From Catenulispora sp. MAP5-51 (GTDB lineage: Bacteria > Actinomycetota > Actinomycetes > Streptomycetales > Catenulisporaceae): DNA of 64,000 nt. The DNA is taken from assembly GCF_041261205.1 (NCBI RefSeq), contig NZ_JBGCCH010000004.1, positions 1-64,000 on the forward strand, in the 5' to 3' direction. Each line of letters begins with the position of its first letter. Within the stretch, counting starts at the first letter, position 1. Below the pieces are notes generated by a model, which was not told where the DNA came from, searched no databases, and saw nothing but the letters and a program-made list of their open reading frames with translations. Position numbers and translations under genes: made by a program. This document shows, one piece after another, positions 45,799-51,737 of this stretch.

Positions 45799-46311
45799 AT
45801 GGACGAGCCCCTCATCCGCCGTGTGGTCTGTCCCGGGTCCTTCGACCCGATCACCAACGGCCACCTGGACATCATCGGCCGCGCCTCGCAGCTGTTCGAC
45901 GAGGTGATCGTCGCGGTGGGGGTGAACGCCGGCAAGGCCGGATCGCTGTTCACCATCGACGAGCGGATCGACCTGGTCAAGCAGGTCAGCGCCGAGTACG
46001 GGAACGTGCGGGCCGAGCCCTTCGAGGGCCTGCTGGTCGACTTCTGCGCGCGGCACGGGATCCGGGCGATCATGAAGGGGCTGCGGGCGGTGAGCGACTA
46101 CGAGTACGAACTCCAGATGTCGCACATGAACCACCGGCTGTCCGGGGTCGAGACGTTGTTCGTGGCCTCCAACCCGCTGTACAGCTACCTGTCCTCCTCC
46201 CTGCTGAAGGAAGTCGCCTCGCTCGGCGGAGACGTCTCGGGCCTGGTCCCCGACCTGGTCCTTTCGTCTCTTACCGACCGACTGGCTGAACGGAAGAAGA
46301 AGTCCGCGTAG
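45799..46311 (+). CDS. coaD: Phosphopantetheine adenylyltransferase
   Basis: 170 residues. VCPGSFDPITNGHLDII contains the T/HxGH nucleotidyltransferase motif, MKGLRAVSDYEYELQM and YLSSSLLKEVASLGGDVSG are CoaD-specific. Fourth step of CoA synthesis. The last eight residues are basic. Confidence 0.96.
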   Translation: MDEPLIRRVVCPGSFDPITNGHLDIIGRASQLFDEVIVAVGVNAGKAGSLFTIDERIDLVKQVSAEYGNVRAEPFEGLLVDFCARHGIRAIMKGLRAVSDYEYELQMSHMNHRLSGVETLFVASNPLYSYLSSSLLKEVASLGGDVSGLVPDLVLSSLTDRLAERKKKSA

Positions 46312-46407: not shown

Positions 46408-47622
46408 GTGGCCACAAGCGACCGCCTGGAGCAGATGGTCGGAGACCTCGTGCAGATCGTCGAGACCGCCAAAGCGGTCCCGATGTCGGCCTCGTGCGTG
46501 ATCAACCGCGCCGAGGTCCTGGAGATCCTGCACGAGCTCGCCGCCGGGGTGTCCGAGGAACTCGCCGATTCGCGGCGCCTGGTCGCCGAGCGCGACGAGG
46601 TGATAGCCCAGGCCCGGCGGGACGCCTCGGAGCACATCGAGGCGGCCCGGCGCGAGCGCGGCAGCATGCTCTCCGGGACCGAGATGGGCCGGGAGGCCGA
46701 GCGCATCCGCGGCGCCGCCCTGGAGGAGGCGCGCCGGATCCGCGAGGACGCCGACAACTACGTCGACGACAAGCTCGCCAACTTCGAGGTGGTGCTCACC
46801 AAGACGCTGCAGGCGGTGGGCCGGGGCCGGGCCAAGATGGTCGGCCGTGACCCGATGTCCGAGCTCGGCGAGCACATGGCCGAGCAGGACGCCGTCGAGG
46901 CGGCGACCCGGCCGGAGTACGACTTCGACGAGCGCGACGAGGTGCCCACCGGCGGCTACCCGCGCGAGACGTACAACACCGGCGAGTACCCGAAGTACAC
47001 CGACGAGGGCTACGAGGCGCAGCAGAACGGCTATCAGCAGGAGCCGTCCTACCAGCCGCAGGAGCCCGCGTACCAGGAGCAGCAGCCGTCGTACCAGGAC
47101 GCGGCCTATGCCGAGCCCGCGTACCAGGAGCCGGCCTATCAGGAGCCGGCGTACGCCGAGCCCGCCTACGCCCAGCAGGGCGCCGTCTACGGCCAGAGCG
47201 AGTACGGCCTGCCGGAGCCGGAGCTCTCGCACGAGTTCGCCGCGGCCGACATGAGCGGCGTCTTCCAGCGCCCGGACTTCTCGCAGGACTACCCGCCGCA
47301 GGAGTACCAGCACCAGCAGCAGCCGGCGCAGGTCGCGGTGGGCTACGGCTACGACACCGAGAACGGCTACGCCGCGAACTACAGCGACCCGGCCTCGGTC
47401 CCGTACCCGGTGCAGCCCTACGGCGCCCAGTACGAGCAGCAGCAACAGCAACAGCAACAGCAGCCGGAGTACCACACCGGCGAGTACCAGGCGTACCCGC
47501 AGCACGAGCAGCAGTACGCCCAGCAGCCGTCGCACCAGCAGCACCCGGAGGCCTCCGGGTTCTTCGACACCGGGATGATCGACGTCCGGCAGTTCCGGGA
47601 CGACCCGTACCAGCAGCACTGA
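46408..47622 (+). CDS. Coiled-coil protein with long Gln/Tyr/Pro-rich tail
   Basis: 404 residues from GTG 46408. Residues 1-160 are a coiled coil of DivIVA or ATP-synthase-b-subunit character (ELADSRRLVAERDEVIAQAR; EAERIRGAALEEARRIRED), as in the small protein that commonly follows coaD in actinomycetes. Residues 165-404 are low complexity: repeats of EPAYQ, runs of nine glutamines, many tyrosines, aspartates and glutamates and almost no hydrophobics. Such composition is prion-like and disordered. A short conserved-looking end (TGMIDVRQFRDDPY) closes it. Function unknown; a polar-growth or assembly role is conceivable. Confidence 0.7.
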   Translation: MATSDRLEQMVGDLVQIVETAKAVPMSASCVINRAEVLEILHELAAGVSEELADSRRLVAERDEVIAQARRDASEHIEAARRERGSMLSGTEMGREAERIRGAALEEARRIREDADNYVDDKLANFEVVLTKTLQAVGRGRAKMVGRDPMSELGEHMAEQDAVEAATRPEYDFDERDEVPTGGYPRETYNTGEYPKYTDEGYEAQQNGYQQEPSYQPQEPAYQEQQPSYQDAAYAEPAYQEPAYQEPAYAEPAYAQQGAVYGQSEYGLPEPELSHEFAAADMSGVFQRPDFSQDYPPQEYQHQQQPAQVAVGYGYDTENGYAANYSDPASVPYPVQPYGAQYEQQQQQQQQQPEYHTGEYQAYPQHEQQYAQQPSHQQHPEASGFFDTGMIDVRQFRDDPYQQH

Positions 47623-47715: not shown

Positions 47716-49731
47716 TCAGCTCCCCGCGAGCTGCCAGCCGCCGAACGGGCTGCCCGTCCCGGCCGCCGTCTGCCGGTTCGCGTGCAGCGCCCCGTCCAGC
47801 TCCATGGCCAGCACGACCAGCCGGCCGTCGGTGTCCACCGCCAGCGCCGGCGCGCCGACGATCACGTTCCCCAGGTCCGGCCAGGACCCGGAGAAGCCGG
47901 CGTTCGCCGCGCTCTGCGACGCCATGCTGACCCCGCCGCCGGCGTTGCGGATCGCGATGCTGATCCGGCCGTCGCCCGCGGTCGCGGTGGCGACGCTCTC
48001 CAGCATCGGCGGGCTGCCGCCGAGCAGCCCCGGGTTCTTCGTCCAGGTGCCGTCGCCCTGCGTCCACTGCGTCGCGACCGCCGGGTTGTTCGGGTCGGCG
48101 TAGAAGATCTCCGGCCGGCCGTCCGCGTTGAGGGCGAAGGAGACCTGGGTCTTCCCGGTCGCCGCGGGGGTCAGCGGTGAGGAGTCCATCGCCCAGCGCT
48201 TGGCCGCGTTCTGCTTCCAGTGCAGGATGCCCTGGCCCGACGGGGCGAACAGCTCGCCGGCGCCGCTGCCGCCCAGGCCCACCGACAGGTCGTCGCGGAC
48301 CTGGTAGCCGCCGAGGTCGGCCCACGTGCTGGGCCAGCTGCCGCCGGGATTCAGGGTCTTGCCGCTGACCCCGGTGCCGAGGTTGCGGACGAACACGGTC
48401 ACGTTCCCGTTCTGCTCGGTGAACGCGGCAGGATCGCCCACCAGCGTCGGGTTGTCGGAGTTGGGGTTGCCCAGCGACTTCCAGGCCCCCCAGACGCCCG
48501 GAGCGGTCTGCACGTCCGTCATGACCGAGTAGTCCGACAGCCGCGTGGTGAACACCCGCAGCAGCCCCGAGGCGTCGACCGTCACCGACAGCCTCGGGGT
48601 CATCCCGCCGCTGCCGGCGATCGGCGTGGGGCCGGTCCAGGCCCCGCCCGGCGAGCTCTCGGTCCAGGTCTGGATCTGGCTGTTGAGGATGGCGAAGGCG
48701 GTGAGCTTCCCGGTGCCGGCCACCGCCGTCCACACGTTCCCGTTCGGCCACCGCGAGTACTGGCGGCTGTAGAAGGGCGTGTAGAACGTGTTGTTCGGAT
48801 CCGGCGAGGTGTCGTACAAGCCGTGATACACACCGGGGATGTCGCCGCGGTCCGGCCCGAGGTAGCTCAGGAAGTCGCCCTTCTTCACCGCGCTGTCGCC
48901 GCTGTTGAGGGTGGAGCCCTCGTTGCTGATGTTGTAGTCGCGGTAGGGGCGCAGCAGGACGTGGCCGCCGTTGTTCGGGCCGTGGTAGTTCGCCACCGAG
49001 TCCAGGGTGAAGCCGCCGGCGCCGAGGTGGTCGGTGTTCCCCGGGTCGCTGTCGAACCGGTGTGGGTCCATGCCGTACACGACGGTCGCGTTGTAGTGCG
49101 CGTAGAGCGCCGTCAGCGAGGCCGTCAGCTGCGACTTGGTGTACGTCTGGTTCGCGTACGCCTGCTCGCAGTCCGAGCCGCCGTCGGCCGCCAGGGTGCC
49201 CATGGTGGCCTCGTGCCAGCCGGTGACCTGGCCGGAGTTGTAGATCTGCTCCAGGATCCCCTGCTTGTTCACGCCGCTGACGTAGTTGGCGTCACCGGCG
49301 TCGTGCAGCTTGAAGAACACCAGCTTCACCCGGGGCGCCTGGTCGAGGGTGTCCTCCTCGACGACCTTGCCGGCGAAGGTGATCGGGGTCCGGGTCCAGG
49401 TGGGGTTCTTCACGCCGGCGATCTCGGCGGCGGCGGCGCGGGCGCCCTCGTCGCGGCTCTCGCCGTACAGGCAGGTGCTCGAGAACGGCTTGCCCGGGCC
49501 CACTTCCGTGGTGGCCGCGCCCGCGGTGAGGAACACCGTGACGAGCGGGTAGTCGTAGACCTTGCGCAGGTCCGGGTTGAAGAACAGGAACGTGTCGTCG
49601 GCGTGCGCGACGACTTGGACGACGTTCGGGGTGGCGGCGAAGGTGTCGGCGTGGGCCGGTCCCGGCGGCACGCCGAACAAGGCTGTCGCGACCGCCAGCA
49701 CGGCGGCGCGGATTCTGAGGTGGCGACGCAT
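47716..49731 (-). CDS. Secreted PIG-L deacetylase with C-terminal beta-propeller
   Basis: 671 residues from ATG 49731. Signal peptide ends near GPAHADT. The N-terminal half is a PIG-L/LmbE-type zinc deacetylase: VVAHADDTFLFF (AHxDD) and the late metal histidine segment DPHRFDSDPGNTDHLGAG. From about residue 330 on come beta-propeller-like repeats (TAFAILNSQIQTWTESSPGG, LFAPSGQGILHWKQN and similar), as in PLL-type sugar-binding propellers. Probably deacetylates an extracellular N-acetyl sugar while the propeller binds glycan. A cytosolic mycothiol role is excluded by the signal. Confidence 0.8.
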   Translation of the reverse strand: MRRHLRIRAAVLAVATALFGVPPGPAHADTFAATPNVVQVVAHADDTFLFFNPDLRKVYDYPLVTVFLTAGAATTEVGPGKPFSSTCLYGESRDEGARAAAAEIAGVKNPTWTRTPITFAGKVVEEDTLDQAPRVKLVFFKLHDAGDANYVSGVNKQGILEQIYNSGQVTGWHEATMGTLAADGGSDCEQAYANQTYTKSQLTASLTALYAHYNATVVYGMDPHRFDSDPGNTDHLGAGGFTLDSVANYHGPNNGGHVLLRPYRDYNISNEGSTLNSGDSAVKKGDFLSYLGPDRGDIPGVYHGLYDTSPDPNNTFYTPFYSRQYSRWPNGNVWTAVAGTGKLTAFAILNSQIQTWTESSPGGAWTGPTPIAGSGGMTPRLSVTVDASGLLRVFTTRLSDYSVMTDVQTAPGVWGAWKSLGNPNSDNPTLVGDPAAFTEQNGNVTVFVRNLGTGVSGKTLNPGGSWPSTWADLGGYQVRDDLSVGLGGSGAGELFAPSGQGILHWKQNAAKRWAMDSSPLTPAATGKTQVSFALNADGRPEIFYADPNNPAVATQWTQGDGTWTKNPGLLGGSPPMLESVATATAGDGRISIAIRNAGGGVSMASQSAANAGFSGSWPDLGNVIVGAPALAVDTDGRLVVLAMELDGALHANRQTAAGTGSPFGGWQLAGS

Positions 49732-49942
49732 CAAGAAGATCCGTGGGGGTGAGTTCCGACGGCTCTAGGCCGATTCGCGCCTATGCGTACTCTCCTGGCG
49801 CGTTTCAGCACTATTCGACACGCCGCCCCGGCGCCAGTACTTCGCAAAGCACTCATACGGCGCAAAGGGACTTGCCGCCGGGGCGCCTGGAGTAGTCAAG
49901 TAAGCGACGACAGTGCTTGATCCATGACTTCAGGGAGCCATC

Positions 49943-50902
49943 GTGCGCAAGGACGTGAAGCCGGCCCGGACCCGTCGTCTGATCACGGTCGCTGGTGCGG
50001 CCACGCTCGTCGCCGGATGCCTGGGCGCGGCTCCGGCATGGGCCGACACAACGCAGACCTTCACCCAGGACGGCACGTTCACGGTGCCCGACGGCGTGAC
50101 CCAGCTCACCGTCACGGCGGTGGGCGCCGGGGGCGGCGGCGGCGGGGACAGCGTCATGCACGGCAAAGCCTCCTGGGGCGGCGGTGGCGGGGGCGGCGGC
50201 GCGATCGTCCAGTGCGTGCTCCCGGTGACGCCCGGGCAGGTGTTCACGGTCTCCGTGGGCGGCTTCGGCGGCCGCGGGTCGTCCCAGGCCGCCACCACGG
50301 TCTTGGCCGGCGGCGGCGGCGGCAGCGGCGGCGGCACCGCGGGCCAGGACGGCCAGGCCGGCAGCTCCAATGGCGGCGACGGCACGTCCGGCACCGCCGG
50401 CGGCGGCGGCGGAGGCGGGGCGAACGGCCGGTCCAGCGGGATGGAGCCGCACGGCGGCGACGGCGGGAGCGGGGCGAGCGTGGTCCCGGGCAGCTCCAGC
50501 CAGGGCGGCAAAGGGGCCACCGACGTCTACGCCGGCGGAGGCGGCGGTGGCGGTGGCGGTGCGACCGCCTTCATGACCTCGGACCTGGCGAACTACGTCA
50601 TGGCGGCCGGCGGCGAGGGCGGCAGCGCCGGCGCGGTCGGCGAGGAGGACGGCGGCCACGGCGGCCTGCCCGGCCTCGGCGGCCGCGACGGAGGCTGCGT
50701 CTCGCAGGGGCAGACGGTCGACGCCACCGTGACCCCGGGCGGCGACGCCACCGGCGGCGCCGCGGCCAACAGCAGCACCAGCGCCGTCGGCGGCACCGGC
50801 GGCACCGGGAACGACGACGGGACCGGCTTGGGCGGGAACGGCGGCGGGGACAGCGACGGCCCGGTGTCGGGCGCCGCCGGCGAGATCGTGGTCAGCTACT
50901 GA
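49943..50902 (+). CDS. Secreted glycine-rich protein
   Basis: 319 residues from GTG 49943. A signal peptide ends near APAWADT. Next comes a short beta segment (TFTVPDGVTQLTVTAVGAG) that recurs in secreted glycine-rich proteins, then about 250 residues with more than 40% glycine, including several runs of 7-9 glycines, and a closing GAAGEIVVSY strand. Only two cysteines. It looks like a structural or surface-coat protein; no enzyme motif. Mycobacterial PGRS proteins share the composition but not the N-terminus. Confidence 0.75.
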   Translation: MRKDVKPARTRRLITVAGAATLVAGCLGAAPAWADTTQTFTQDGTFTVPDGVTQLTVTAVGAGGGGGGDSVMHGKASWGGGGGGGGAIVQCVLPVTPGQVFTVSVGGFGGRGSSQAATTVLAGGGGGSGGGTAGQDGQAGSSNGGDGTSGTAGGGGGGGANGRSSGMEPHGGDGGSGASVVPGSSSQGGKGATDVYAGGGGGGGGGATAFMTSDLANYVMAAGGEGGSAGAVGEEDGGHGGLPGLGGRDGGCVSQGQTVDATVTPGGDATGGAAANSSTSAVGGTGGTGNDDGTGLGGNGGGDSDGPVSGAAGEIVVSY

Positions 50903-51122
50903 GAGGATCGCCGGGAAAGATCGTCGGGAGCGCGCCGCGGCCGCCGGGAACCTCGCCGGCGGACCGCGGCGCGACCCGTTTCCCGGGGCGGTCCGGGCCC
51001 GGTGAGGACGTGCGTTTGGCCGACACCCCGGCCCTCGGCTATCGTGGACGTCTGCCTGACTGCCGGATGGCTGACGCACGCCTTTCGCCTTGAGGTCCAC
51101 CAAACACGACGATAGAGGGATC

Positions 51123-51737
51123 ATGCCTGGCACGACGCCGAAGAAACCGGCGCAGCCCGACCTTCGCTCGCCGTATGTGGTGGACACCCAAGACTTCGCC
51201 AGGCGCCCGGGTTCGATGCGCAAGCTGCACGAGACCGTCCCGGCGCCGGAGTCCCTCGGGGACAAGGACGGGGTCGCCAGCGTGCCGGCGGGTTCGGACG
51301 TGGAGCTCGACGTGCGGCTGGAAGCCGTCGTGGAGGGCGTCCTGGCCACCGGTACCGCCAGTGCCGCCGTGGCCGGGGAGTGCGTCCGGTGCCTGGAGCC
51401 GCTCGACCTCGAGGTCGAGGCGGAGTTCCAGGAACTGTACTTCTTCCCGGGTGAAGACACGGGAGGCGACGAGGACGCGGTGTTCCTCGTCAACGACCTG
51501 CTCGACCTCGAGCCGGTCGTGCACGACGCGGTGGTGCTCGCACTGCCGTCGGCACCGTTGTGCCGGGACGACTGCCAGGGACTGTGCCCCGAATGCGGCG
51601 CGAACCTGAACGACGACCCGGAGCACTCGCACGAGACCGTCGACCCCCGGTGGGCGGCCTTGGCGGACCTGAAAGACCAAGTAGCCAGCAACAGCGGTAC
51701 GGCGCCGGTCGCCCCGCCCGCCCAAGACCAGGAGTAG
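51123..51737 (+). CDS. DUF177 (YceD) protein
   Basis: 204 residues from ATG 51123. Contains GECVRCLEPLDLEVEAEFQE and a C-terminal cysteine cluster CRDDCQGLCPECGANLN, both typical of the DUF177 family linked to 23S rRNA/L32 supply. It lies four bases before rpmF, the usual arrangement. A TATCGT box near 51039 could be its promoter, giving a leader of about 70 nt. Confidence 0.9.
   Translation: MPGTTPKKPAQPDLRSPYVVDTQDFARRPGSMRKLHETVPAPESLGDKDGVASVPAGSDVELDVRLEAVVEGVLATGTASAAVAGECVRCLEPLDLEVEAEFQELYFFPGEDTGGDEDAVFLVNDLLDLEPVVHDAVVLALPSAPLCRDDCQGLCPECGANLNDDPEHSHETVDPRWAALADLKDQVASNSGTAPVAPPAQDQE

What the first reader, a model, noticed from the sequence alone, without database searches (positions are those of the whole stretch)
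46408..47622. Prion-like Gln/Tyr/Pro tail on a DivIVA/b-subunit-type coiled coil
A 160-residue coiled coil is joined to about 240 residues of EPAYQ-type repeats and a nine-residue glutamine run, rare in a bacterium with this GC content because CAG/CAA and TAC codons must be kept. Tyr-rich, acidic, disordered tails favour phase separation or scaffold formation. The neighbours (coaD, DUF177-rpmF) are housekeeping genes.
Basis: partly seen in the sequence, partly recalled or inferred. Interest (0 to 1): 0.55.

Follow-up and report, generated by a model that had tools for sequence, protein, structure and literature searches.

The report
SepIVA with disordered tail, conserved tip
This is a Catenulispora copy of SepIVA, a known polar-growth scaffold protein of actinobacteria; its odd glutamine/tyrosine-rich tail drifts freely in sequence, but it carries two strictly conserved short pieces, one at its very end, that look like docking sites for unknown partners.

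Summary
In detail: window 46408-47622 encodes 404 residues, a coiled coil (to about residue 167) plus a Q/Y/P/E-rich tail with EPAYQ repeats and nine consecutive glutamines. It is the orthologue of SepIVA, between coaD and DUF177-rpmF-rnc. A disordered C-terminal extension is already published for Streptomyces venezuelae SepIVA, so the tail as such is not new. The nine-Q run is unstable (3 to 9 in the genus), and the GC argument fails (tail GC3 0.973).

I read the protein as a tip-localised coiled-coil scaffold whose tail is a tether presenting docking peptides, like SSB's tip or FtsZ's C-terminal peptide. The partner is unknown. Condensation is possible but undemonstrated; the published S. 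venezuelae deletion has no phenotype.

The parts
46408..47622 (+). sepIVA orthologue, 404 aa
   Evidence: family coil in 60 of 60 relatives; synteny
46408..46839 (+). structured N-terminal part, residues 1-144: short helix, conserved loop PMSASC-V(V/I)NR-AEV, two long helices; dN/dS 0.105 (computed from residue 10)
46852..46908 (+). further predicted helix, residues 149-167
46840..47202 (+). spacer 1, residues 145-265, mostly disordered, EPAYQ-type repeats; dN/dS 0.497, 20% of pairwise cells gapped
47203..47307 (+). conserved genus block, residues 266-300 (YGLPEPELSHEF..ADMSGVFQRPDFSQDYPPQEY); dN/dS 0.059; 3 of 35 columns variable among 10 genomes
47308..47544 (+). disordered spacer 2, residues 301-379; dN/dS 0.597
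47437..47463 (+). nine-glutamine run, length variable within the genus
47545..47610 (+). C-terminal tip peptide, residues 380-401 (PEASGFFDTGMIDVRQFRDDPY); dN/dS 0.034; 1 of 22 columns variable
45799..46311 (+). coaD, upstream syntenic neighbour
51090..51737 (+). DUF177 protein, downstream syntenic neighbour, followed by rpmF and rnc

Best explanation
The gene is the Catenulispora orthologue of sepIVA. Shown: coil, synteny, disorder prediction, and selection on two tail peptides. Inferred: the coil dimerises and sits with DivIVA at growing poles, as published for S. venezuelae; the low-complexity Q/Y/P/E segments act as a flexible spacer of roughly 200 residues; the spacer displays a C-terminal docking peptide (extended FDT-x-MI followed by a short capped helix) and, in Catenulispora, a second internal peptide, which capture partner proteins at the tip. 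The architecture works like the SSB linker-plus-tip or the FtsZ linker-plus-C-terminal-peptide. The partner is unknown.
For: Synteny: coaD, DUF177 and rnc in 77 of 77 named non-Catenulispora loci of the order; DUF177 in 39 of 39 and coaD in 38 of 39 loci of other families. The tip is carried by 108 of 109 unique orthologues, six of them with T, A or L variants. Selection: dN/dS 0.034 (tip) and 0.059 (block) against 0.497 and 0.597 in the spacers, with dS 0.24-0.34 everywhere; variable columns 1 of 22 and 3 of 35 against 71 of 154 (Fisher 1e-4 and 2e-5). The site after FDTxMI is only S, D, T or N, all helix N-cap residues (general knowledge), in 102 of 102; AlphaFold2 raises pLDDT to 60 over 391-400 and puts a helix at 393-397 inside an otherwise largely unstructured tail. 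S. venezuelae SepIVA localises to tips and binds itself and DivIVA in a two-hybrid test (PMC11571769).
Against: No partner is known, and no binding was shown here. Deleting S. venezuelae sepIVA gave no detectable phenotype (PMC11571769, abstract and discussion). Tip pLDDT is only about 60. The two-hybrid contact with DivIVA could be made by the coil. L140 has lost the tip. L015, in the same order, has neither long tail nor tip. The block boundaries were set after seeing the alignment.
Confidence: 0.6

Rival explanations
1. The tail is a prion-like or sticker-spacer region whose Tyr/Gln content drives condensation of SepIVA at the hyphal tip; composition, not a docking peptide, is the function.
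For: Q 8.5-22.4%, Y 5.7-12.2% and acidic residues 12-19% in all 109 orthologues, although the spacers barely align. Aromatic residues in the window spacer are more evenly spaced than shuffles, z -2.95.
Against: Over 109 orthologues the spacing z has median -0.51, below -1.64 in 16 and above 1.64 in 7: no general constraint. The Q run is unstable. Composition alone does not explain dN/dS 0.03 at the tip. It could coexist with docking.
Confidence: 0.2
2. The invariant Thr of FDTxMI is a phosphorylation switch read by an FHA-domain protein (pThr with Ile at +3), linking the polarisome to Ser/Thr kinases.
For: The Thr is kept in 108 of 108 tip-bearing orthologues, with Ile at +3 in 107 and Leu in 1. 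DivIVA is AfsK-phosphorylated in S. coelicolor (PMC13432765, passages). SepIVA was recovered in the M. smegmatis FhaA interactome (PMC11898655, passage). The FHA +3 preference is recalled, not looked up.
Against: No phosphosite at this Thr is reported in the passages read; supplements could not be read. Phe and Asp are as conserved as Thr, and Met and the helix part nearly so, more than a bare FHA site needs. SepIVAs sampled from other families lack the tip, so the FhaA link probably does not rest on it.
Confidence: 0.12
3. The tail is a near-neutral low-complexity expansion without function; conservation of the tip is a by-product.
For: Spacer dN/dS 0.5-0.6, many indels; no deletion phenotype in S. 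venezuelae; most families do without it.
Against: The tip and block are kept with normal synonymous change; 244 of 245 genomes keep the tip.
Confidence: 0.07

Closest known systems
SepIVA of Streptomyces venezuelae (vnz26025; PMC11571769)
   Same: Same gene neighbourhood type, DivIVA-like coiled coil, disordered C-terminal extension.
   Different: Streptomyces-type SepIVA mostly has a second copy of the YVDxKLxxFEAVLxKTLEAVGRGR unit before the disordered part (two units in 89 of 109 by pattern); Catenulispora has one unit, a longer disordered part and its own internal block. The vnz26025 sequence was not held here, so no direct alignment was made.
SepIVA of mycobacteria (MSMEG_2416/Rv2927c)
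   Same: Orthologue by published synteny and BLAST (PMC11571769, section 13).
   Different: About 100 residues shorter than the S. venezuelae protein for lack of the extension; reported septal and essential (PMC11571769 abstract), though a viable M. smegmatis null is reported in PMC7654743 (passage).
SSB (OB-fold core, disordered linker, acidic tip)
   Same: Core, disordered linker, conserved C-terminal tip that recruits partners (PMC10018359, abstract; linker recalled and from search terms).
   Different: Unrelated core and tip sequence; no DNA binding implied.
FtsZ C-terminal linker and C-terminal peptide
   Same: Polymer-forming core, disordered linker, conserved terminal peptide (listing and starts of abstracts).
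   Different: No homology.
F-type ATP synthase subunit b
   Same: Helix resemblance only, E 0.0022 over profile positions 44-125.
   Different: No membrane anchor, no atp neighbourhood.

Membership tests
SepIVA | Conserved gene context (coaD upstream, DUF177/rnc downstream) | tested here: met
   Window coaD 45799, DUF177 51090, rnc to 52766; same context in 77 of 77 named loci of the order. In Catenulispora two genes are inserted.
SepIVA | Family coiled-coil sequence | tested here: met
   60 of 60 relatives, 139 of 197 class genomes, 31 invariant columns in 15 diverse sequences. The sequences of vnz26025 and MSMEG_2416 themselves were not available.
SepIVA | Polar or septal localisation, DivIVA contact | not testable with these tools
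   Published for S. venezuelae only.
DivIVA-like domain proteins | N-terminal motif RGYDxxEVD between a short helix and the coil (PMC9858780, passages) | tested here: not met
   No RGYD in the protein. The same place, between helix 3-20 and helix 34-88, holds PMSASCVINRAEV. The published 'similarity to DivIVA' is therefore remote or structural here.
F-type ATP synthase subunit b | N-terminal membrane helix and atp operon | tested here: not met
   Residues 1-33 carry charges and no long hydrophobic stretch (read; no predictor run); neighbours are coaD and DUF177. NCBIfam b-subunit models at 9.4-9.6 bits, far below cut-off.
Prion-like domain | Long Q/N-rich, compositionally biased disordered stretch | tested here: inconclusive
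   Q 17.7%, N 1.5%; predicted disordered; no prion predictor was run.
Prion-like domain | Self-templating assembly or condensation | not testable with these tools
   Needs experiment.

The most novel reading that the evidence does not exclude
SepIVA is a general polarisome hub that presents a clade-specific C-terminal docking peptide: FDTxMI plus capped helix on a long tether in Streptomycetales, and an acidic PLP(G/E) end directly after the coil in many other families. Finding what binds these tips would identify an unknown cell-wall or polarity factor recruited to growing actinobacterial tips.
Probability: 0.35. Interest if true: 0.6.

Novelty: new member of a known kind. Interest (0 to 1): 0.35.

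Why it matters
Streptomyces SepIVA sits at hyphal tips with no known job and no deletion phenotype. A nearly invariant C-terminal peptide on a fast-evolving tether gives a concrete bait for finding its partner, and suggests that redundancy, not irrelevance, explains the silent deletion. It also warns against reading the Q/Y-rich composition alone as the function.

Tried and rejected
Rejected: ATP synthase b identity; Pfam gave no family. Rejected: GC tension. Rejected: functional poly-Q. Looked for the tip in other proteins of the same genomes: none above chance in the 41 relatives and, at E 0.01 or better, one match per genome except G600, whose second match was not in the listed rows. Searched six tip strings in papers: 0 papers. 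Alignment A2 used the wrong strand for three loci and was discarded in favour of A3.

The acidic PLP tip of other families was noticed first and then counted on the same data (35 of 95, against 35 of 1331 control ORFs). A further sample gave 3 of 19 against 5 of 162 controls, mostly from families already seen to lack it, so support is weak. L254 (G701) was fetched but left out of that count.

In one search the script chose an internal Met (residue 10) as start for Catenulispora; rates for the coil therefore start at residue 10. The 80 named loci are the best 80 of 509, so they are biased to near relatives. One search took 109 unique of 117 order loci; L015 (same order, no tail) was kept apart in the 'other' group, and of the 95 'other' proteins 81 had a recognisable coil end for tail length. 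Locus tags used as search terms were partly recalled; one of them (SCO5569) hit a paper that gives that tag to RNase III, so I do not use it.

Full report
The ORF at 46408-47622 (+) is real and encodes 404 residues.

Identity. Pfam finds nothing and NCBIfam only noise-level models, ATP synthase subunits among them. The coil matches in all relatives (60 of 60; Streptomyces-type genomes show an adjacent second match within the same gene, and G002 has one weak second hit elsewhere) and in 139 of 197 class genomes. The gene lies after coaD and before DUF177, rpmF, rnc and mutM; coaD, DUF177 and rnc are also found around it in 77 of 77 named loci of the order. PMC11571769 (abstract, sections 11, 13, 17, 20 and found passages read) describes the S. 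venezuelae protein in conserved flanking context as SepIVA: 350 aa, with a C-terminal extension 'predicted to be mainly disordered', at hyphal tips, self-interacting, DivIVA-interacting, dispensable. So the protein is SepIVA, and a disordered tail on it is already in print.

Anatomy. AlphaFold2 on 21 orthologues (A4) gives helices 3-20, 34-88, 92-144 and 149-167, then pLDDT below 50 over 171-203, 206-226 and 228-384, and a local rise to about 60 at 391-400 with a helix at 393-397. The most conserved parts of the structured domain are the loop PMSASC-V-NR and the stretch YVDxKLANFEVVLxKTL.

Tail evolution. In ten Catenulispora genomes the spacers differ by many insertions and deletions of EPAYQ, QQPDAYG and Q units. 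Nei-Gojobori rates: coil dN/dS 0.105; spacer 1 0.497; block 266-300 0.059; spacer 2 0.597; tip 380-401 0.034; dS is 0.24 to 0.34 in all, so the contrast is selection and not mutation rate. Variable ungapped columns: 41 of 89 and 30 of 65 in the spacers, 3 of 35 in the block, 1 of 22 in the tip. Among all 22-residue windows of the tail the best are those on the tip and the block.

The tip. It was noticed, before the rate analysis. A profile of 13 rows (A1) gives one strong hit per genome in 40 of 41 relatives; 16 of 197 class genomes have a strong hit, all in the order, and the other hits are at E 0.0366 or worse, so 0 of 181 outside the order; 8 of 198 phylum genomes, all in the order, with six further hits at E 0.02-0.09 that I take as noise; and 244 of 245 genomes of the order. 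The exception, G015 (family f3), has a short SepIVA with no tail. In 109 unique orthologues of the order, 102 fit FDT(G/S)(M/L)I and 6 more fit with T or A after FDT, or L for I; one, L140, has lost it. The position after FDTxMI is S, D, T or N in 102 of 102, which are helix N-cap residues (general knowledge), and is mostly followed by x-(E/D/R)-Q-(L/F)-R. I infer an extended FDTxMI segment followed by a capped short helix.

Distribution of tails. Order: tail 154-296 residues, median 222, Q 8.5-22.4%, Y 5.7-12.2% (109 of 109). Elsewhere in the class: median tail 26 residues in the 81 of 95 proteins with a recognisable coil end; 12 have 60 or more, and among these Q is at most 7.3%. The long Q/Y tail is thus a feature of the order minus family f3, not of SepIVA in general. 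In most Streptomyces-type proteins part of the extra length is a second copy of the last coil unit (two copies in 89 of 109 by pattern).

The glutamine run. Longest runs in the genus are 9, 6, 5, 5, 3, 5, 3, 6, 3, 3; only 1 of 109 orthologues has 9. It looks like slippage-type length variation in a CAG/CAA tract, with no sign of being kept. The codon argument fails: GC3 of the tail is 0.973.

Mechanism. The anatomy is oligomeric core, variable tether and conserved terminal peptide. SSB recruits at least 17 partners by its tip (PMC10018359, abstract), and FtsZ has a disordered tail with a conserved C-terminal peptide (listing and starts of abstracts). I infer that SepIVA, placed at growing tips by its coil and DivIVA, uses the tether to present the tip (and, in Catenulispora, the block) to partners. 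Condensation of the spacer may add to this: aromatic spacing is unusually even in the window protein (z -2.95) but not generally (median z -0.51 over 109). A phospho-switch reading is open. None of this is experimentally shown, and the published S. venezuelae deletion was silent, which warns that any role is redundant or conditional.

Novelty. The protein is a new member of a published family, and the disordered extension is published. I found no mention of the tip: six tip strings occur in 0 papers of the held library, a word search of PMC11571769 for C-terminal, motif and disordered showed none, and 'polarisome, Streptomyces, intrinsically disordered' gave two papers that, from the listing, are about other proteins. 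Supplementary figures, including the published alignment, could not be read.

Noticed in passing
47716-49734 (-) and 49943-50902 (+): A secreted PIG-L deacetylase-like gene and a glycine-rich secreted-type ORF (names recalled from sequence look, no family search run) are inserted between sepIVA and DUF177; matches to both lie after sepIVA in 3 of 3 named Catenulispora contigs, and neither was found in the 77 other named loci of the order.
   Followed up: partly
L031-L113 and L194-L233, SepIVA C-termini: Short-tailed SepIVAs of other families often end in acidic residues followed by PLP(G/E): LP within the last five residues in 35 of 95 (17 of 33 families) against 35 of 1331 control ORFs; a further sample gave 3 of 19 against 5 of 162.
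   Followed up: partly
L016 and other Streptomyces-type loci: The last coil unit (YVDxKLxxFEAVLxKTLEAVGRGR) is duplicated in tandem in most Streptomyces-type SepIVAs, absent in Catenulispora and in L118/L119.
   Followed up: partly
L101 and L102 (family f30): Another family has EQPY-type repeats in its SepIVA tail but no FDTxMI tip.
   Followed up: no
L088, L219 and L282: SepIVAs of one family share a different conserved end, PAARGGMTGHVRLTS.
   Followed up: no
L140: One Streptomyces orthologue loses the tip after LDET; no reading frame nearby shows it, so assembly error or real loss.
   Followed up: partly
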